Shown here piece by piece: positions 67-7,742 of a stretch of DNA of 47,423 nucleotides (positions within the stretch are counted from its first letter, which is position 1; each line of letters starts with the position of its first letter). A program made the position numbers and the translations under genes. The notes under the pieces were generated by a model. That model worked only from the letters and a program-made list of their open reading frames with translations. It had not been told where the DNA came from and did no database searches. Source of the DNA: Flavobacteria bacterium RIFCSPLOWO2_12_FULL_35_11. GTDB lineage: Bacteria > Bacteroidota > Bacteroidia > Flavobacteriales > Flavobacteriaceae. The stretch covers positions 1-47,423 of the forward strand of contig MGWK01000065.1 of NCBI GenBank assembly GCA_001800975.1, read 5' to 3'.

Positions 67-1005
67 CTAAGTATAAATATCCGTTCTGTAATTTTCTTCA
101 TTGCCTTCAACCATTTGAATATAACTGTTGTACCGTGAATAGGCAATTTCTTCGTTTTCAACGGCGTCTTTTATGGCGCAGTTTGGTTCATTCATATGCA
201 AACAATTGTGAAATTTACATTTTCCTTTCAGCTTAAAAAATTCAGGAAAATAATCGGCGATTTCTTGAGGTTCAAAATCCACCACCCCAAATCCTTTGAT
301 TCCGGGCGTGTCAATAATGAATCCGCCAAAACTCAATTCGTACATTTCGGCAAAAGTGGTGGTGTGTTGCCCTTGTTTGTGCTGTTTGGAAACCTCAGCG
401 GTTTTTAAATTTAGGCTAGGCTCAATGGCATTTACCAAAGTGGATTTCCCCACGCCCGAATGCCCCGAAAACATGGTTGTTTTGTCTTTCATTAACGCCT
501 TAACCTTATCTATATTGATGTGTTTTGTGGCAGAAACATCAATACATTGGTAGCCGATTGACGTGTAAATAGCTTCATATTCCGCTTTTATTTCCAGTTG
601 CTCTGGCGTATACATATCAATTTTGTTGAAAAGAATGACGGCGTGAATGCTGTAGGCTTCCGCAGTGGCCAAAAAACGATCTATAAATCCGGGCGAGGTT
701 GGCGGACTGTCGATAGTAACCAGTATAAAAGCGGTGTCAATATTGGAGGCGATGATGTGCGTTTGTTTGGAGAGGTTTACGGATTTTCGAATAATATAAT
801 TTTTCCGTTCAAAAATTTTATTGATAACGCCGATACCTTTTCCTTCTTCATATTCAAAATTTACGTGGTCGCCAACAGCCACCGGATTGGTGCTTTTGAT
901 GCCTTTCATACGAAACTTTCCTTTCAGCCTGCAATCAACCCTGTCGCCATCTTCGGCATAAACATTATACCAACTTCCTGTAGATTTTGTAACAACTCCT
1001 TTCAT
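67..1005 (-). CDS. rsgA: Ribosome small-subunit-dependent GTPase A (RsgA/YjeQ)
   Basis: This is a late-stage 30S assembly GTPase that binds the immature small subunit and releases maturation factors. The protein has 312 residues, a normal length. An OB-fold region comes first, followed by the circularly permuted GTPase that defines the family: G4 NKID at about 127-130 precedes the P-loop GHSGVGKST at 181-189 and G3 DTPG at 232-235. The C-terminal zinc site is visible as C263, C268, H270 and C276. An in-frame ATG 17 codons upstream would put the start at 1056. I chose 1005 because the conserved OB-fold begins there (MKGVVTKSTG) and a promoter -7 element ends five bases before this ATG, which leaves no room for the longer form. 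It is transcribed alone and ends in a terminator. Confidence 0.95.
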   Translation of the reverse strand: MKGVVTKSTGSWYNVYAEDGDRVDCRLKGKFRMKGIKSTNPVAVGDHVNFEYEEGKGIGVINKIFERKNYIIRKSVNLSKQTHIIASNIDTAFILVTIDSPPTSPGFIDRFLATAEAYSIHAVILFNKIDMYTPEQLEIKAEYEAIYTSIGYQCIDVSATKHINIDKVKALMKDKTTMFSGHSGVGKSTLVNAIEPSLNLKTAEVSKQHKQGQHTTTFAEMYELSFGGFIIDTPGIKGFGVVDFEPQEIADYFPEFFKLKGKCKFHNCLHMNEPNCAIKDAVENEEIAYSRYNSYIQMVEGNEENYRTDIYT

Positions 1006-1190: not shown

Positions 1191-2327
1191 TTATTCTGGT
1201 GTGCAATTTATAGCATAATTAGCGGTAGCATCTTTAATCCAACCAGATGTATTTTGACCTTCATATATTTTTATACAAGAAAGATTTGGATTAATTTGGC
1301 AATTTAAATAAGTTAAAAGAGTATTGTTACTTACATCCAAACTTGTGAGATCGTTATTATTAATAACTATATAATATAAACCAATATTACTGGTTAGATT
1401 TATACTTGTCAGATCATTATTATCACAGACTAAACTATACAAATTAGTATGAGAACTTACATTCAAACTTGTGAGATTGTTATTATAGCACTGTAAAGCA
1501 TATAGTGAATTAACGTCACTAATAATTAAACTATTGAGATTGTTTCTGTTGCATTGCAATTCCGCTAAAGCAATATTATTGCTTACATCTAAACTTGTGA
1601 GTTGGTTGTTATCACTACAATATAAAATCCTTAAATCAGCATTTTCGCTTACATCTAAACTCGTGAGTTGGTTATTATTACATTCTAGACCTCTTAAAAC
1701 TGAATTTTCGCTTACATCTAAACTTGTCAAATTATTATTATTATTACATTTTAAGGATAGTAAAGCTGCAAAATCTTCTATGCCTGTTAAATCACTAATG
1801 CTTTTGCTAGATACATCAAGAGAAGTAACTGCATTAATGTTTGGGGTATGAACATAATTATCCAATACAATATCATAACCTAAATCAATTAAGGCTTGTT
1901 CAAAGTTGTTATCGGGAACATAGGTTCCACAAACTTCATCAGTTTCCGTATTACAATCGTTGTCTATGCCGTCACCGCAAATTTCAACAGCGCCAGGGTG
2001 TATGGCAGCATTGGTATCATCGCAATCTAAGCCATTTAACAAGGTGCATTGATTATCTGCCGCATAACCATCGCCATCCGCATCAAGGACAACATCTCCG
2101 GGTTGCACACGTTTTTCAACTACTGTCACTACTGAATAGGTGCCTTTGCGTTCATTATAACGGCAAACAGTTACTTTGACAGGTCTTGCATTCAATTCAG
2201 TTTTAATTTGGTTTTCCTCATAAATGACGGCATCATCATCCTGGCAATTTTGCATTAAAAATACAAACCCAATAAAGAGTGCAAATAAGCACCATTGGGC
2301 ACGACTCACTTTTTTTAAACTTTTCAT
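1191..2327 (-). CDS. Surface lipoprotein with MopE metal-binding motif and leucine-rich repeats
   Basis: This 378-residue protein is probably surface-exposed and adhesive or ligand-binding; no substrate can be named. The N-terminus has two lysines, a hydrophobic stretch and a Cys at residue 28 followed by QDDD. That acidic tail resembles the lipoprotein export signal of Bacteroidota surface lipoproteins, although the residues before the Cys (LMQN) are an atypical lipobox. Residues about 83-133 hold an Asp/Cys-rich segment (DADGDGY, DCDDTNAAIHPGA, CGDGIDNDC) matching the putative metal-binding MopE motif. From about residue 165 there are some eight leucine-rich repeats of about 21 residues (LTSLDVSxNxxLxxLxC). 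The tail (NPNLSCI ... NC) is a usual ending of flavobacterial LRR proteins, and no type 9 secretion tail is visible. It forms its own transcription unit with a good terminator. Confidence 0.8.
   Translation of the reverse strand: MKSLKKVSRAQWCLFALFIGFVFLMQNCQDDDAVIYEENQIKTELNARPVKVTVCRYNERKGTYSVVTVVEKRVQPGDVVLDADGDGYAADNQCTLLNGLDCDDTNAAIHPGAVEICGDGIDNDCNTETDEVCGTYVPDNNFEQALIDLGYDIVLDNYVHTPNINAVTSLDVSSKSISDLTGIEDFAALLSLKCNNNNNLTSLDVSENSVLRGLECNNNQLTSLDVSENADLRILYCSDNNQLTSLDVSNNIALAELQCNRNNLNSLIISDVNSLYALQCYNNNLTSLNVSSHTNLYSLVCDNNDLTSINLTSNIGLYYIVINNNDLTSLDVSNNTLLTYLNCQINPNLSCIKIYEGQNTSGWIKDATANYAINCTPE
1300..1770 (-). repeat. Tandem ~63-bp coding repeats (LRR units)
   Basis: The DNA shows recurrent near-copies of a segment that on the minus strand encodes LTSLDVS, spaced about 63-66 bases apart. 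These are the LRR units of the overlapping gene. Their similarity at the DNA level suggests that unit number could change by recombination. Confidence 0.7.
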
Positions 2328-2701
2328 AATATTTAATTTTAATTGTTTTTTTAAAATATTAAGGAGGAAAACAATTTCGCTATTGAAGTTCGTTTATTCT
2401 ATAAAATTACGCTATGAGATTTGTCAATAAATTCAATGACTTTCGTCAGTTAACACACTGATATTAAACAGTTAAAATTATTAAGGAAAGTGATTATAAT
2501 CAGTTTACAGACGCACAAACTGATTAAAAAAGAAAATCCCGAAAACCAGTATGTTTGCGGGATTTATTAAATTTGATGGTTTTCATACAAGTTCTACTAA
2601 AGTTAACAATATAATCGCAAAAAAACAATCGTGTATTTGACTTTGGTGTTGGGAATAAACCTATTAATGCAGTAAACAAAGTCAATAATTATACTGGGAA
2701 A
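2328..2701. other. 374-bp intergenic region with tandem hairpins and an inverted repeat
   Basis: No convincing gene lies here. It contains a 10-bp hairpin (2497-2506 with 2517-2526), a terminator-like hairpin on the minus strand (2534-2541 with 2558-2565) without an obvious upstream gene, a weak minus-strand promoter match at 2598-2605, and a 9-bp inverted repeat (TTGACTTTG at 2637-2645, CAAAGTCAA at 2677-2685) just before the restriction operon. Confidence 0.6.
2534..2565 (-). terminator. Orphan minus-strand terminator-like hairpin
   Basis: The stem AAATCCCG (2534-2541) pairs with CGGGATTT (2558-2565) around a 16-base loop. On the minus strand it is followed by TTTTCTTTTTT. No minus-strand gene ends to its right, so it either terminates a small transcript or is left over from a lost gene. 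Confidence 0.55.
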
Positions 2702-2752
2702 ATGACTAAAAAAAGCCCTATATTTAGCAAAAATTATTTACAAAAATTGCCA

Positions 2753-4699
2753 ATGACCATTCAACAATACCTATCAAAAATAAACACATTATACCTCACA
2801 GGAAACGCAAGAGAACATGCCTATCGGGGTGATTTGCAAAACCTCATTATGGGTATTTTGCCCGATATTTTGGTGACCAATGAACCCGCAAGAGTTGCGT
2901 GTGGCGCTCCCGATTATGTGCTGACCCGTAAAGACGTTCCCGTTGGTTATATTGAAGCAAAAGACATTGGGGTTGACTTAGGCAGCAAGACTTTAAAGGA
3001 GCAGTTTGAGCGCTATAAAGCAGGTTTGTCAAATTTGATATTTACTGATTATTTGGAGTTCCATTTTTATAAAGAAGGTGTATTTACCACCAAAATTTCC
3101 ATTGCAAAACTACAATTCCCCTCCGCTGGAGGGGTGTCCGAAGGACGGGGTGGCCAAATTGTTCCCATTCCCGAAAACTTTGACCAATTTACCCAACTCA
3201 TCACAAATTTTGCCCAAACCGTTTCGCAAACCATCAAATCACCAACCAAGTTAGCTCAAATGATGGCGGGCAAGGCAAAATTAATGGCAGATGTTATTGA
3301 AAAGTCGCTAAACCTTGACGACCAACAGGGAAACCAGTCCACCATAAAATCACAAATGCTTTCGTTTCAGCAAATGTTGATTCACGATATAGACAACAAG
3401 GCTTTTGCAGACATTTATGCGCAAACCATTGCTTACGGTATGTTTGCCGCTCGCTATCACGACCCAACTTTGCCAACCTTTTCACGGATGGAAGCGGCGC
3501 AACTAATTCCTAAAAGCAACCCGTTTTTAAGGAAGTTATTTCAGGACATTGCGGGTTTTGACCTCGATATTCGGTTGACGTGGATTGTTGATGAATTGGT
3601 CAATATTTTCTTGGCGAGTGATGTGGCGCTTATCATGAAAAACTTTGGGAAAAGCACCAAACAGGAAGACCCTGTGGTACACTTTTACGAAACCTTTTTG
3701 GGGGAATACAACCCCGCTTTGCGCAAAGCCCGCGGCGTTTGGTACACCCCGCAACCTGTGGTAAATTTCATTGTTCGTGCCGTTGACGATATTTTAAAAA
3801 CAGAATTTAATTTACCGCAAGGCCTGGCCGATACCAGCAAAACAAAAATTACGAAAAAAGCCATTACCCAAACCGCTTCCAAAAAGAATGCTGTAATAAA
3901 AGAAGTTGACGTTGAGGTTGAAGTGCACAAGGTGCAAATACTTGATCCCGCAACAGGAACGGGAACATTTCTTGCCGAAGTGGTGAAACACATCCATAAA
4001 AAATTTGAAGGGCAACAAGGCATTTGGAGCAAGTATGTTACCAATGACCTCATTCCGCGCTTAAACGGTTTTGAGCTGTTAATGGCGAGTTATGCGATGG
4101 CACACCTTAAAATGGATATGCTGTTGACCGAAACAGGCTACAAACCCACAGACGACCAACGTTTTCGTATTTTCCTGACCAATTCGCTTGAAGAAGCGCA
4201 TCCCGATACCGCGACATTATTTAGTTCCTGGCTGTCTGATGAAGCCGACCAAGCCAATGCCATAAAACGTGATACGCCTGTGATGGTGGTGATGGGAAAT
4301 CCGCCTTATAGTGGCGAAAGTTCCAACAAAGGGGAATGGATCATGAATTTGATGGAAGATTACAAAAAAGAACCGGGTGGAAAAGAGAAATTAAAAGAAC
4401 GAAACCCAAAATGGATCAATGACGATTATGTAAAATTCATTCGATTTAGTTCCCATTTGATAGAAAAAAATGGCGAAGGAATCCTGGCGTTTATCAATCC
4501 TCACGGTTATTTAGACAATCCTACTTTTAGGGGAATGCGGTGGCATTTGATGCAAACTTTCGATAAAATTTACACCATCGATTTACACGGAAATTCCAAG
4601 AAAAAAGAAACTTGCCCAGATGGTTCAACAGACCAAAATGTATTTTACATTATGCAAGGTGTTTCTATCAATATTTTTGTAAAAAAGAAAACTCACTAA
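2753..4699 (+). CDS. Type ISP/IIG-like restriction-modification enzyme, N-terminal part (nuclease + N6-adenine methyltransferase)
   Basis: This is the first half of a combined restriction-methylation enzyme of the kind annotated as 'type ISP restriction/modification enzyme' in Bacteroidota. The N-terminus has a PD-(D/E)xK-type nuclease signature: D54 in GAPDYV, and E68-A-K70 in YIEAKD. A helical region follows. Next comes an N6-adenine methyltransferase with motif I DPATGTGTF from about 398 and catalytic motif IV NPPY at 516-519. No helicase block separates nuclease and methylase. Relatives continue for another ~350-400 residues into a specificity region; here the frame stops after NIFVKKKTH and the remainder is encoded at 5503-6693. 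An ATG at 2702 would add 17 residues; I prefer 2753 because relatives begin with the MTIQQYLSKIN-like segment. About 13 residues (FPSAGGVSEGRGG, about 122-134) come from an inserted palindromic repeat. Confidence 0.85.
   Translation: MTIQQYLSKINTLYLTGNAREHAYRGDLQNLIMGILPDILVTNEPARVACGAPDYVLTRKDVPVGYIEAKDIGVDLGSKTLKEQFERYKAGLSNLIFTDYLEFHFYKEGVFTTKISIAKLQFPSAGGVSEGRGGQIVPIPENFDQFTQLITNFAQTVSQTIKSPTKLAQMMAGKAKLMADVIEKSLNLDDQQGNQSTIKSQMLSFQQMLIHDIDNKAFADIYAQTIAYGMFAARYHDPTLPTFSRMEAAQLIPKSNPFLRKLFQDIAGFDLDIRLTWIVDELVNIFLASDVALIMKNFGKSTKQEDPVVHFYETFLGEYNPALRKARGVWYTPQPVVNFIVRAVDDILKTEFNLPQGLADTSKTKITKKAITQTASKKNAVIKEVDVEVEVHKVQILDPATGTGTFLAEVVKHIHKKFEGQQGIWSKYVTNDLIPRLNGFELLMASYAMAHLKMDMLLTETGYKPTDDQRFRIFLTNSLEEAHPDTATLFSSWLSDEADQANAIKRDTPVMVVMGNPPYSGESSNKGEWIMNLMEDYKKEPGGKEKLKERNPKWINDDYVKFIRFSSHLIEKNGEGILAFINPHGYLDNPTFRGMRWHLMQTFDKIYTIDLHGNSKKKETCPDGSTDQNVFYIMQGVSINIFVKKKTH
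3114..3155 (+). repeat. Palindromic repeat element, copy A, in frame inside the restriction enzyme gene
   Basis: Two adjacent hairpins are present: CCCCTCC-GCT-GGAGGGG, then GTCC-GAA-GGAC followed by GGGGTGG. The segment aligns with the reverse complement of copy B at 6182-6223 at about 33 of 42 positions. It resembles a dispersed palindromic element common in flavobacterial genomes. It is translated without a stop. Confidence 0.75.
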
Positions 4700-4702
4700 A
4701 AT

Positions 4703-5506
4703 ATGGCAAAAATAAACGTAAAAAATACTGAAATCACAGTTTTTGCCCAAAACGATACCGATTTTATTTCCTTAACCGATATGTCTGGAGGTTTTAAGGA
4801 AGGAAGTGCGTTAATTGGCAAATGGATTACCAATAAAAATACCTTAGAATATTTAGGAATTTGGGAGAAAATTAACAATCCTGATTTCAATTACCCCGAA
4901 TTCGGGGTAATTGAAAATAATGCTGGCATCAACAGATTTGTTATGTCTGTGGGGCAATGGATTGATCGCACGCAAGCGAAAGGTTTATTGGTAAAAGCAG
5001 GAAGATATGGCGGAACGTTTGCACATAAGGATATTGCTTTTCATTTTGCGATGTGGCTAAGTCCTGAATTCCAAATTTACCTAATTAAAGAATTTCAACA
5101 CCTTAAAGAAAAAGAGCAAAAACAAATTGGTTGGTCTGTTCAAAGAGAATTGGCAAAGATGAATTACTATATTCACAGCGATGCCGTTCAGCAATTTTTA
5201 ACGCCTGCCACACTAACAAGTTTGCAAAAAAATATGATTTATGCCTCAGAAGCCGATGTATTGAATGTGGCACTTTTTGGAAAAACAGCAAAACAATGGC
5301 GGGAGCAAAACCCAACATCCAAAGGGAATATTCGAGATTATGCGGGCATCAATGAACTCATTTGCCTTTCGAATCTCGAAAACCTGAATGCGGTTTGGAT
5401 TCAGGAAAACATTGCACAATCCGAACGATTAGTAAAACTAAACCTCGTGGCAATTCATCAAATGAATATCCTAAAAGAAGTTGAAACCAAAAAATATCTG
5501 AAATGA
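4703..5506 (+). CDS. KilA-N domain protein inserted between the two parts of the restriction enzyme
   Basis: This 267-residue protein carries an N-terminal KilA-N domain, a DNA-binding fold first seen in phage and large DNA virus proteins. Recognisable stretches are ISLTDMSGGF, IGKWITNKNTLEYLG, SVGQWIDRTQAKGL, the family hallmark AGRYGGTFAHKDIAFHFA, and WLSPEFQIYLIKEFQHL. The C-terminal half (about 140-267) is helical and resembles the extension of Bacteroidota KilA-N proteins often found next to restriction-modification genes. It starts three bases after the upstream stop. Its stop overlaps the ATG of the downstream enzyme fragment (ATGA at 5503-5506), so translation is probably coupled. It could regulate the restriction genes, act as a specificity or antirestriction factor, or be a mobile passenger; the sequence does not decide. 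Confidence 0.85.
   Translation: MAKINVKNTEITVFAQNDTDFISLTDMSGGFKEGSALIGKWITNKNTLEYLGIWEKINNPDFNYPEFGVIENNAGINRFVMSVGQWIDRTQAKGLLVKAGRYGGTFAHKDIAFHFAMWLSPEFQIYLIKEFQHLKEKEQKQIGWSVQRELAKMNYYIHSDAVQQFLTPATLTSLQKNMIYASEADVLNVALFGKTAKQWREQNPTSKGNIRDYAGINELICLSNLENLNAVWIQENIAQSERLVKLNLVAIHQMNILKEVETKKYLK
4885..4916. repeat. Perfect 32-bp palindrome inside the KilA-N gene
   Basis: The half-site TTTCAATTACCCCGAA (4885-4900) is followed without a spacer by its exact reverse complement (4901-4916). It could form a 16-bp cruciform or RNA hairpin, or bind a dimeric protein. It lies in codons about 62-72 of the KilA-N frame. Confidence 0.9.
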
Positions 5507-6693
5507 AAAAATTAGCCCAAGTTTTCCATTTTGACCTCTACGGAAAACGAGAAGATAAATATGATTTTCTAAACGAAAATTCGTTGGCAACTATCGCTTT
5601 TGCAGCGCTAAACCCACAAGAACCCGAACTGTTTTTTGTACCCAAAGATTTTGACTCTAAAAGCGATTATGATGAAGGGTTTAAAGTAAATGAATTATTG
5701 CTAATTAATAATGTGGGAATTGTGACTGCTAAAGATGCTATTCTAGTTAATGATACAAAAGCGGATTTAATTAACAAAGTAGAACATTTTTATGAAATAG
5801 AAGCTAACACGAATCTTGTCAAAAGAATTTCATACCGACCATTTGATGATAAATATATTTATTATGACACTAAAATTGTTGAAAGAACAAGGGAAAAAGT
5901 TATGCAACATTTTCTAAAAAGAGAAAATATTGGTTTAATTATAGGAAGACAAGGACAAGTAGTTGGAACAATGCCTTGGAATTTATCTTTTATTACAAAT
6001 ACTATTACAGATTTTAATATGTATTATAGAGGAGGTGGTATGTTATTTCCGCTGTATCTATATCCCGAAACCAACGCCCAACAAACATTACATGGAAATA
6101 TTGAAAGAACCCCCAACCTCAACCTTGAAATTGTAAAGCAATTTGCAGATGGTTTGGCTTTAACATTCACCAACGAAAAAACCACCCCGCCCGTTGGGCA
6201 CCCCTCCAATGGATGGGAATTTGCACCAATTGATGTGTTGGATTATATTTATGCCGTGTTGCATTCCCCAACCTATCGGGAAAAATACGCAGCATTTTTG
6301 AAAATAGATTTTCCACGTGTGCCCTATCCAAAAGACAAAGACCTGTTTTGGCAATTGGTAAAATTAGGCGGAGAAATACGGCAAATTCATTTGCTGGAAA
6401 GTGCCGTTGTGGAGAAATATATGACGCAATACCCAATAGATGGCAACAATATTGTTGTTAAACCCAACTACAAAAACGGCAACGTGTACCTCAACGAAAA
6501 CCAATATTTTGCCAACGTTCCAGAAGTGGCCTGGAATTTTTATATCGGTGGCTATCAGCCAGCCCAAAAATGGCTCAAAGACCGCAAGGGAAGGGAATTG
6601 AGCACAGAAGATATATTTCACTATCAAAAAATAATTGTGGCTTTAAGCGAAACAGACAGGATTATGAAAGAGATTGATAAAATTGATTTTTAA
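5503..6693 (+). CDS. Type ISP/IIG-like restriction-modification enzyme, C-terminal specificity part
   Basis: This 396-residue protein continues the enzyme begun at 2753. It opens with KKLAQVFHFDLYGKREDKYDF, the segment that in single-chain relatives follows directly after the VSINIFVKxGKKK linker. The rest is the target-recognition region, with conserved stretches such as ISYRPFDDKYIYYD, VLDYIYAVLHSPTYREKY and FPRVPYPKDKDLFW, ending near YQKIIVALSETD. It has no catalytic motif of its own, so it would need to associate with the first part to give a methylase or nuclease with defined specificity. Its ATG overlaps the stop of the KilA-N gene by four bases. Residues about 226-238 (TTPPVGHPSNGWE) derive from a palindromic repeat. 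The frame is otherwise intact, which argues for a working two-chain enzyme more than for decay, but a split pseudogene remains possible. Confidence 0.8.
   Translation: MKKLAQVFHFDLYGKREDKYDFLNENSLATIAFAALNPQEPELFFVPKDFDSKSDYDEGFKVNELLLINNVGIVTAKDAILVNDTKADLINKVEHFYEIEANTNLVKRISYRPFDDKYIYYDTKIVERTREKVMQHFLKRENIGLIIGRQGQVVGTMPWNLSFITNTITDFNMYYRGGGMLFPLYLYPETNAQQTLHGNIERTPNLNLEIVKQFADGLALTFTNEKTTPPVGHPSNGWEFAPIDVLDYIYAVLHSPTYREKYAAFLKIDFPRVPYPKDKDLFWQLVKLGGEIRQIHLLESAVVEKYMTQYPIDGNNIVVKPNYKNGNVYLNENQYFANVPEVAWNFYIGGYQPAQKWLKDRKGRELSTEDIFHYQKIIVALSETDRIMKEIDKIDF
6182..6223 (-). repeat. Palindromic repeat element, copy B, in frame inside the specificity part
   Basis: The reverse complement matches copy A (3114-3155) at about 33 of 42 positions. 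The second stem reads GCCC/GGGC here and GTCC/GGAC in copy A, a base-pair-preserving change that supports a selected structure. The element is in the opposite orientation to copy A and is also translated without a stop. Confidence 0.75.
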
Positions 6694-6764
6694 ATCAGAA
6701 ATTTCATCATTTAAATACAATAAATTTAAATAAATGAGTTAATACTCCTATAAAAGAGAAAAAC

Positions 6765-7742
6765 ATGACTATTGATGCCCAATTTTTATTCGACAATCAG
6801 TTAATAACTGCCGTTGAAAACCTGATAAAAAATTCCAAAAATGAATTATTGCTTATATCCCCTTTCATTGATTTAGACAGAAGAATACAAGATGCTTTGT
6901 CTGAAAAAATAAACAAAACCGATTTCAAACTGAAGGTGCTATTTGGGGAAAATGAAAACAACATTTATAAAAGCATCAAAAAGGACAGTTTGGATTTTTT
7001 GAAAAAATTTCCTGATATTGAAATTAGATATAATGAAAAGCTTCACGCAAAATTCTTTTTAAATGACACCCATTTTATTTTGTCGAGCCTAAATCTTTAT
7101 GATTACTCATTGGCGAAAAATATTGAATCGGGAATTTTGGTCAAACATTCCGCAAGAGGGCTTTTCGGAAAAGCTATGGATGGGGCAAATAGCCTTATTT
7201 CAGAAGGCGTTTCATCGGTTAAAGCCAATGTTTTAGGCATTGAAAATAATGAGGAAGACCCAACGATAAAATTTTATCAAATTTTTGAGAGTTCCTATTT
7301 AAAATTTAAAGCGGTCCCAGTTTTAAAAAATAAAAAAGGACTTTTCAGCGGAATTGTTGGCACTAAAGAAATTGATGCCACAACGATACTGGTGGATGAA
7401 CTTTCTGTTTTTTTCAGCCCAATTGCCGAAAATATAAAACCTGTTGAGAAGTATACAAATACCTCTGTGGAAAATTCACAAATTGTTGAGGAGCATTTCA
7501 AAATTCCTGAAAATGAAGCAGAAATTGTGGAACGAAAAAAACTTTCCGCCTCAATAATCGCGCAATTCATGGGAATTGACCAGGCGAATTTTATTGAATT
7601 GATGGAGAATGAAGGTTATATTATGGATTATAAAATAACCGATTTTGGCAAGGCAAATGGATTGGAATTAAAAAACGATATGGGAAGAGCGTATATTGCA
7701 TATCCTGAAAATTTAGAAGTAATCGAAAAATACAGGCGTTAA
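6765..7742 (+). CDS. Phospholipase D-like (HKD) protein, candidate nuclease of the defence cluster
   Basis: This 325-residue protein has one phospholipase-D catalytic motif, HxKx4D, as H94-A-K96 ... D101 in LHAKFFLND, followed by the usual FILSSLNLYDYS strand. The early LLLISPFIDLDRRIQ segment fits the first part of the PLD fold. A single HKD motif implies that two subunits would form one active site, as in the nuclease Nuc and the restriction enzyme BfiI. Residues about 250-325 (SASIIAQFMGI ... YITDFGKANGLE-like) look like a small winged-helix or Lsr2-type C-terminal domain. No signal peptide is present, so it is cytoplasmic. It starts 71 bases after the restriction operon on the same strand and is probably part of the same accessory cluster. 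A role as a DNA nuclease is an inference from family and context. Confidence 0.7.
   Translation: MTIDAQFLFDNQLITAVENLIKNSKNELLLISPFIDLDRRIQDALSEKINKTDFKLKVLFGENENNIYKSIKKDSLDFLKKFPDIEIRYNEKLHAKFFLNDTHFILSSLNLYDYSLAKNIESGILVKHSARGLFGKAMDGANSLISEGVSSVKANVLGIENNEEDPTIKFYQIFESSYLKFKAVPVLKNKKGLFSGIVGTKEIDATTILVDELSVFFSPIAENIKPVEKYTNTSVENSQIVEEHFKIPENEAEIVERKKLSASIIAQFMGIDQANFIELMENEGYIMDYKITDFGKANGLELKNDMGRAYIAYPENLEVIEKYRR

What the first reader, a model, noticed from the sequence alone, without database searches (positions are those of the whole stretch)
2753..6693. A type ISP/IIG restriction-modification enzyme split in two, with a KilA-N gene exactly at the break
Seen: the first ORF stops right after NIFVKKKTH; three bases on, a complete KilA-N gene starts; its stop overlaps (ATGA) the start of an ORF beginning KKLAQVFHFDLYGKREDKYDF. 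Known of the family: single-chain relatives read from VSINIFVKxGKKK straight into this same segment. Both halves keep full reading frames and catalytic motifs (D/EAK, DPATGTGTF, NPPY). Inference: a KilA-N gene entered the linker between methylase and specificity region and turned one enzyme into a translationally coupled three-gene operon, perhaps with KilA-N as a third subunit or regulator. This would be an unusual architecture of restriction system.
Basis: partly seen in the sequence, partly recalled or inferred. Interest (0 to 1): 0.82.

Follow-up and report, generated by a model that had tools for sequence, protein, structure and literature searches.

The report
Split restriction enzyme with embedded gene
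A bacterial DNA-cutting-and-marking enzyme that is normally one protein is encoded here as two, with a different gene between the halves, and the stretch holding the split appears to move as a unit between related enzymes by recombination.

Summary
N-half 2753-4699 (PD..EAK nuclease, N6-adenine methylase), KilA-N 4703-5506 and C-half 5503-6693 (Type_ISP_C) form a tight operon, and single-chain relatives span both halves. An independent Lutibacter MAG (L002) has the same order. In a distant genome (L152) a different gene, a YhcG/DUF1016 PDDEXK nuclease, sits at the same junction. Both genes match PADLOC phage-defence-candidate families (PDC-S22, PDC-S02).

The main new result is mosaicism. In 10 of 10 distinct split N-halves the body is closest to a single-chain enzyme (two by a hair) while the last ~88 aa are closest to another split form; the first ~50 aa of the C-half behave alike. 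Between window and L002, DNA identity is roughly 90% along N but ~97% over 4379-5600 (N-end, KilA-N, C-start); the recognition region beyond has been replaced.

Best reading: a ~1.2-kb split cassette with an exchangeable accessory gene recombines into single-chain enzymes, giving an RM subunit plus a separate specificity subunit. No helicase of true type ISP was found; the enzyme is closer to type IIG (DrdV). Function is untested.

The parts
2753..4699 (+). N gene (RM-like subunit): PD..EAK nuclease motif and N6-adenine methyltransferase; frame opens at 2702, homologues start at 2753
4703..5506 (+). KilA-N gene (267 aa), PADLOC family PDC-S22; embedded accessory gene
5503..6693 (+). C gene (specificity-like subunit, PF18135 Type_ISP_C); ATGA overlap with KilA-N
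4379..5650 (+). inferred recombination cassette: end of N gene + KilA-N + start of C gene; 5' changepoint computed at 4379, 3' edge read by eye at about 5600-5655
5655..6060 (+). part of the C gene replaced relative to the Lutibacter MAG L002; taken to be the recognition region (inferred from divergence)
4697..4705 (+). junction: N stop (TAA), 3 nt, KilA-N start (ATG)
6765..7742 (+). PLD-like (PLDc_2) gene 71 nt downstream, also next in L002; membership in the system not shown

Best explanation
This is a type IIG-like (DrdV-like) restriction-modification enzyme made as two subunits: an RM subunit (nuclease plus methylase) and a separate specificity subunit, co-transcribed and probably translationally coupled with an embedded accessory gene (KilA-N, PDC-S22). 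The halves most likely reassemble non-covalently, as HsdM-HsdS or BsaXI RM-S do (inferred). The split is carried on a ~1.2-kb cassette: the end of the methylase coding sequence, an exchangeable accessory gene, and the start of the specificity coding sequence. It recombines through conserved coding flanks into single-chain enzymes and turns them into two-subunit operons. The recognition region is then exchanged independently. KilA-N is best read as an embedded, probably autonomous defence or regulatory gene that gains co-expression, not as an obligate subunit (inferred).
For: Anatomy and single-chain relatives. Same order in an independent MAG L002. A different gene (YhcG, PDC-S02) at the same junction in L152. 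Body of N scattered among single chains: 9 changes, at least 7 forced by starred branches; one clade rejected, p-AU 7e-65. Columns 521-633 of N: one split clade, SH-aLRT 94. N-end + C-start block, four paired split forms: one clade, SH-aLRT 99. 10 of 10 split representatives nearest to a split form in the block and to a single chain in the body; 500 random sets of singles reach at most 0.36 against 1.00. C-start: 48 of 51 split rows nearest to split, 53 of 55 read-through controls nearest to single. DNA: changepoint at 4379, dLL 25.0 against a permutation maximum of 9.4; same-codon fraction 0.96 (N end), 0.94 (KilA-N), 0.92 (C start) against 0.78-0.80 in N body, rsgA, distal C and PLD. Apparent purifying selection on N: 96% aa identity with only 78% same codons (a crude measure, no dN/dS test). 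Recognition region replaced.
Against: No biochemical evidence that the halves assemble, cut or methylate. Intact split loci with the accessory gene in view are only three (window, L002, L152), the first two being one lineage; 11 other split N-halves were seen as proteins only, without their downstream DNA, so what follows them is unknown. Two of the 10 representatives are nearer to a single chain in the body only by 0.931 against 0.929. Between window and L152 the block's same-codon fraction (0.62; C start 0.68) lies within the range of single-chain controls (0.47-0.67; 0.41-0.69), so codons do not show recent transfer at that distance, and shared selection at a subunit interface could add to the protein signal. 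Beyond the C-start block split rows stay somewhat clustered (16-24 of 51 against about 11 expected). The N body also has single 100-nt steps at 96-97% between window and L002. Trees are 'quick' runs, the block is short, and the compared split N-halves were all found by searches with the window's own N protein.
Confidence: 0.66

Rival explanations
1. A KilA-N gene inserted directly into the linker of a Lutibacter single-chain enzyme and split it in place; KilA-N became a third subunit or regulator.
For: Break exactly at the linker; tight coupling; the N body of the window is close to a single chain (P0002, 95.0% in columns 1-520).
Against: The flanking coding sequence (last ~88 aa of N, first ~50 aa of C) is not that of the nearest single chain (82.3% to P0002 in columns 521-633) but resembles other split enzymes, including one carrying another gene (92.9% to L152).
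Confidence: 0.12
2. The split forms arose independently many times, and the similar N-end and C-start are convergent adaptation to a two-subunit interface.
For: Block codons between window and L152 are no more alike than in controls; N bodies are polyphyletic.
Against: The block differs at many scattered positions on both sides of the junction; within Lutibacter much the same block is a DNA tract with raised synonymous identity that also covers KilA-N.
Confidence: 0.17
3. The split enzyme is a dying pseudogene pair carrying a passenger KilA-N gene.
For: Related loci do decay: L159 stops about 24 aa into the C part, L153 lacks a C-half, L206 is broken.
Against: Both frames and motifs intact in the window, both frames open in L002; N apparently under purifying selection; recognition region replaced while the rest is kept.
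Confidence: 0.08

Closest known systems
Single-chain 'type ISP'-annotated / type IIG enzymes of Bacteroidota (P0002 and kin; PADLOC PDLC03610); by fold DrdV (7lvv/7lo5)
   Same: Same nuclease-methylase-recognition order; up to 91% identity over the N-half; DrdV is the best Foldseek match of a single-chain model (model of low confidence)
   Different: Here two genes with a third gene between them
True type ISP enzymes LlaGI and LlaBIII (5ffj, 4xqk)
   Same: Related methylase and recognition domains
   Different: They are one chain with an ATP-dependent motor (PMC6158711, passage); no helicase family was matched here
Type IIB BsaXI and type I HsdM/HsdS
   Same: Separate RM (or M) and S proteins; BsaXI is reconstituted by mixing RM and S (PMC11997821, passages; PMC9159934, start of abstract in a listing); EcoKI hsdM/hsdS overlap by 1 nt, are translationally coupled, and work when fused (PMC3510504, abstract)
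   Different: The BsaXI S subunit has two recognition domains; the C gene here has one PF18135 stretch
Defence genes embedded in RM operons (PrrC in EcoprrI; DarTG2 between hsdS and hsdR; 'guilt-by-embedding' PDC families)
   Same: Accessory gene inside an RM operon; KilA-N matches PDC-S22 and YhcG PDC-S02 (PMC12988326, PMC12707154, PMC12255303, passages)
   Different: Those examples sit within operons of separate subunit genes; here the embedding point is inside what is elsewhere a single reading frame, and the junction appears to move with flanking coding sequence

Membership tests
Type ISP | nuclease, ATPase/translocase, methylase and TRD in a single polypeptide | tested here: not met
   Two proteins; no helicase or ATPase family matched in either
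Type ISP | Type_ISP_C specificity domain | tested here: met
   PF18135, 2.7e-80
Type IIG / DrdV-like | nuclease + N6-adenine methylase + TRD without translocase | tested here: met
   Both halves match PDLC03610 in successive parts; motifs; DrdV best fold match of a single-chain relative (low-confidence model)
Type IIG / DrdV-like | one polypeptide | tested here: not met
Type IIG / DrdV-like | cleaves and methylates DNA at a defined motif | not testable with these tools
   needs methylome and cleavage assays
Type IIB (BcgI/BsaXI) RM + S | separate S subunit gene | tested here: met
Type IIB (BcgI/BsaXI) RM + S | S subunit with two TRDs | tested here: not met
   A single PF18135 stretch covers most of the C gene
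Type IIB (BcgI/BsaXI) RM + S | (RM)2S assembly | not testable with these tools
   needs purified proteins
PDC-S22 embedded defence candidate | sequence match to the family | tested here: met
   PDLC04962, 7.1e-120 over residues 3-265
PDC-S22 embedded defence candidate | encoded inside another defence operon | tested here: met
   Between the N and C genes here; some relatives are next to type I, II or IIG RM genes
PDC-S22 embedded defence candidate | protects against phage | not testable with these tools
   no experiment; [quoted passage not shown]

The most novel reading that the evidence does not exclude
A recombination-borne 'split cassette' (methylase end, exchangeable accessory defence gene, specificity start) turns single-chain restriction-modification enzymes into two-subunit enzymes across Bacteroidota orders, giving a reusable docking site for defence genes inside what was one open reading frame.
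Probability: 0.55. Interest if true: 0.8.

Novelty: new variant of a known kind. Interest (0 to 1): 0.7.

Why it matters
Defence genes embedded in RM operons are known; how they settle there without breaking the host system is less clear. Here the embedding point lies inside a former single reading frame, both halves stay open, and the junction seems to travel with its coding flanks. If the halves work together, this is a natural route from single-chain to two-subunit RM enzymes, a natural cut point for split restriction-modification enzymes, and a marker for finding unknown defence genes: whatever lies between such halves is a candidate.

Tried and rejected
Structure prediction of KilA-N (mean pLDDT 44.0) and of single-chain P0002 (58.1) was too poor to place the break in a fold with confidence; Foldseek on the latter was used only as a pointer to DrdV. 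KilA-N had no solved relative by sequence at E up to 1. Viral-contig scans: the N-half found four loci, three read as single chains and L165 partial; two C-half relatives found four loci, of which L209, L211 and L212 were read and are single chains (L210 not read); the window's C-half found none; KilA-N found eight loci whose neighbours I did not read. Plasmid searches: only two places were looked at, Bernardetia (a decayed single chain) and Roseinatronobacter (one single chain and a second copy annotated as two overlapping genes). The second class survey added no genome with a match beyond. G1462 ends at a contig end and G1112 lies beside one; G1189 lacks the end of the N part in the stretch held; G807 stops about 24 aa into the C part and G796 reads on and stops later. 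Matching contig lengths between the KilA-N and C lists (3564; 4535) were noticed by eye and not counted, since chance matches are likely. Codon comparison of window with L152 was inconclusive. Promoter and terminator scans gave no more than shuffles.
Full report
Observation. The three genes are as described: N (2702/2753-4699), KilA-N (4703-5506) and C (5503-6693), all on the + strand, with 3 nt between the first two and a 4-nt ATGA overlap between the last two. N carries GAPDY...IEAK, DPATGTGTF and NPPY and matches N6_Mtase and Eco57I; C matches Type_ISP_C; the middle gene matches KilA-N. Both halves match one PADLOC type IIG profile in successive parts. Own-genome searches at E<=0.001 found one KilA-N relative and one Type_ISP_C domain, both in this locus.

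Single-chain relatives. Of the 120 listed relatives of the N-half, 108 carry both halves in order; 96 of these are 1000 aa or longer (longest 1111) and the other 12 are shorter. The remaining 12 have no C match and end at the same point...NIF(V/I)KK(K/N/R), without the TG of the single-chain linker; four more proteins under 760 aa end beyond it. Single-chain junctions read like N(I/L)FVKTGKKKxxELGKVFHFDLYGKRE; typical split C genes begin M(K/E)KKxAQVFHFDLYGKREDKYDF. In the C-half search 54 of the 120 listed proteins start near this point under one loose rule; under another rule 48, not counting the window's own, entered the trees. The two-gene form is therefore not private to this window.

How common. 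N-half searches at E<=1e-100 found matches in 11 of 397 genomes of the family, 30 of 395 of the class, 37 of 398 of the genus of G127, 41 of 395 of the phylum, 3 of 108 of the order of G494 and 26 of 295 in a second class draw, all 26 already. By my count from the tables these are 115 distinct genomes. I held DNA for 112 loci, by my count 100 distinct places (12 were fetched twice). At the junction (loci, then places): 96 loci (91 places) read on for 60 aa or more; 5 loci (3 places: G000, G494, G432) stop at the junction; 4 loci (2 places) stop within 60 aa past it; 3 loci (2 places) are open to the end of the stretch; 4 loci (2 places) lack the N end. Matches without a locus were judged only by the tables. 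An intact gene and a C-half follow in G000 and G494; in G432 a TPR-like gene follows and no C-half is seen before the contig ends.

What lies between the halves. In L002, a Lutibacter MAG, the order is N (97% to the window), KilA-N (97%), C (65%), PLD gene. In L152 (G494, another order of the class; N body 69% identical) the N-half ends ...NIFVKKKN, 4 nt on starts a 335-aa gene, and the C-half overlaps its end. That gene is YhcG (DUF1016_N + YhcG_C PDDEXK) and matches PADLOC PDC-S02; the KilA-N gene matches PDC-S22. PDC families are described as coming from a guilt-by-embedding approach (PMC12988326, passages read). I take this to be the 2024 preprint by Payne and co-workers cited in PMC12255303 (passages); it is not held and was not read.

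KilA-N elsewhere. Of 80 loci with KilA-N relatives (the best 80 of 178), only L002 has the N/KilA-N/C order; in L010 a C-half-like frame lies upstream of KilA-N. I selected 80 adjacent ORFs (at least 150 aa, within 250 nt) and scanned 79; the one dropped, in L010, matches the C-half by BLAST. Of the 79, with L002's own two included, 8 match N6_Mtase, 8 Eco57I, 5 Methylase_S, 5 HsdM_N and 4 ResIII. Of ten neighbours that I chose for PADLOC, four are type I methylases, one a type II/IIG methylase, one a type II nuclease, one type IIG, one helicase-like, and two had no match. Relatives also occur in 18 of 50,697 phage records, among them Staphylococcus phage EW and streptococcal satellite phages. 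So the gene belongs to a free-standing family that repeatedly, though not mostly, settles beside or in RM operons.

Mosaic structure, protein level. I compared 14 split N-halves (the window, L152 and the 12 listed proteins, P0001 being that of L002) with 163 single-chain N-halves. A 40-column scan shows split rows mostly nearest to single chains in every window up to column 540 (0 to 3.7 of 14 nearest to split; about 1 expected) and nearest to other split rows from window 521-560 onward (13.3 to 14 of 14). On the whole N the split label needs 6 changes; on columns 1-515 it needs 9, at least 7 forced by starred branches; on columns 521-633 it needs one (SH-aLRT 94). Holding the split rows together on columns 1-515 is rejected (p-AU 7e-65, quick tree, 14 against 40 chosen rows). 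P0012 is 99.2% identical to single-chain P0036 over columns 1-520 but 89.4% after; the window is 95.0% then 82.3% to P0002; window and L152 are 69.1% then 92.9% to each other. After thinning to 10 representatives under 96% identity, 10 of 10 are nearest to a split form in columns 546-633 and 10 of 10 to a single chain in columns 1-520 (P0019 and P0030 by 0.931 against 0.929). 500 random 14-member sets of singles reach at most 0.36 in the block; the nine body-nearest single partners reach 0.12.

On the C side, 51 split rows against 190 others: 48 of 51 nearest to split in columns 1-40, 47.3 in 21-60, 34.9 in 41-80, then 16-24 of 51, against about 11 expected from the share of split rows (two windows scored only 26 rows, 15.5 and 16.5 of them). 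The control is 55 read-through fragments from the same search: 53 have a single chain as nearest row; of 135 other singles 129 do. A tree of the whole C-half needs 17 changes of the label, at least 13 forced. On the joined block (88 + 60 columns) of four split forms whose halves could be paired, the split forms are one clade (SH-aLRT 99) among 133 singles; on the N body the same four need three changes. One of the four pairs, P0003 with P0316, rests on equal contig lengths only.

Mosaic structure, DNA level. Window against L002 in 100-nt steps: rsgA (101-1000) 87-96%, N body (2701-4400) 86-97%, then 95-100% in every step over 4401-5600, 81% at 5601-5700, 58-70% over 5701-6100, distal C (6301-6700) 86-92%, PLD region (6801-7700) 71-90%. 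A single changepoint in 2753-5600, a range chosen after seeing the profile, falls at 4379 (8.7% against 2.6% mismatches; dLL 25.0, largest of 300 permutations 9.4). Same-codon counts among identical residues: N body 403/516, N end 78/81, KilA-N 229/244, C start 43/47, distal C 97/122, rsgA 229/291, PLD 200/256; Fisher tests against the N body give 3e-5, 1e-8 and 0.04 for N end, KilA-N and C start. The DNA tract starts and ends close to where the protein block does (first diagnostic residues near 4433), though it was found with a different pair and method. Against this, codons of the block between window and L152 are not more alike than in single-chain controls: at that distance recent transfer is not shown.

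Mechanism. Shown: tight gene order, intact motifs, high protein against lower codon identity in N, replacement of the recognition region, two accessory gene types at one junction, mosaic block. Inferred: co-transcription; N and C assemble; KilA-N is autonomous or regulatory; homologous recombination in conserved coding flanks moves the cassette. Precedents: BsaXI is an (RM)2S assembly reconstituted from RM and S (PMC11997821, passages; PMC9159934, start of abstract in a listing), and EcoKI M and S, naturally overlapping genes, work when fused (PMC3510504, abstract).

Known or new. Searches of the held papers for KilA-N with embedding, RM or anti-phage terms, type ISP with split, embedding terms, BcgI with type IIG and specificity-subunit terms, PDC-S22 (one paper, a co-occurrence statement, passage) and DUF1016 with RM showed no description of this arrangement in the listings or in the passages that I read; no paper was read whole. 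I file it as a new variant of a known kind.

Noticed in passing
G000:C53:94516-94836 (L220), G000:C88:19606-19917 (L221); L152:5260-5786: DUF559 (PF04480) nuclease domains lie in frame inside unrelated proteins: a B12-dependent methionine synthase-like ORF and a leucyl-tRNA synthetase-like ORF in the window's own genome, and the specificity half in L152. In L220 and L152 inverted repeats flank them (25 nt, 100%; 39-45 nt, 82-92%); none was found around the one in L221. They look like protein-coding mobile insertions.
   Followed up: partly
window 3128-3153: A G-rich 26-nt element inside the N gene encodes part of GGVSEGRGG; it is the only copy in the genome at up to 3 mismatches. Related peptide motifs occur in 14 of 240 relatives, and near-copies form part of the inverted repeats around DUF559 in L152.
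   Followed up: partly
window 6765-7742: A PLD-like gene (weak DrmC matches) follows the C gene here and in L002; whether it belongs to the system was not tested.
   Followed up: no
window 1191-2327 (-): A gene whose product looks by eye like a calcium-binding-type DxDGDG region plus leucine-rich repeats (not scanned) lies between rsgA and the RM operon in the window but is absent from L002, where rsgA is directly next to N.
   Followed up: no
L018:2476-5131: In a Puniceicoccaceae MAG a KilA-N relative sits tightly between two methyltransferase-like genes, overlapping each by 4 nt; another embedded case in a different RM type.
   Followed up: partly
L153 (G432:C5): An N-half is broken at NIF, the usual junction, and is followed by a TPR-like gene (by eye) with no C-half before the contig ends.
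   Followed up: no
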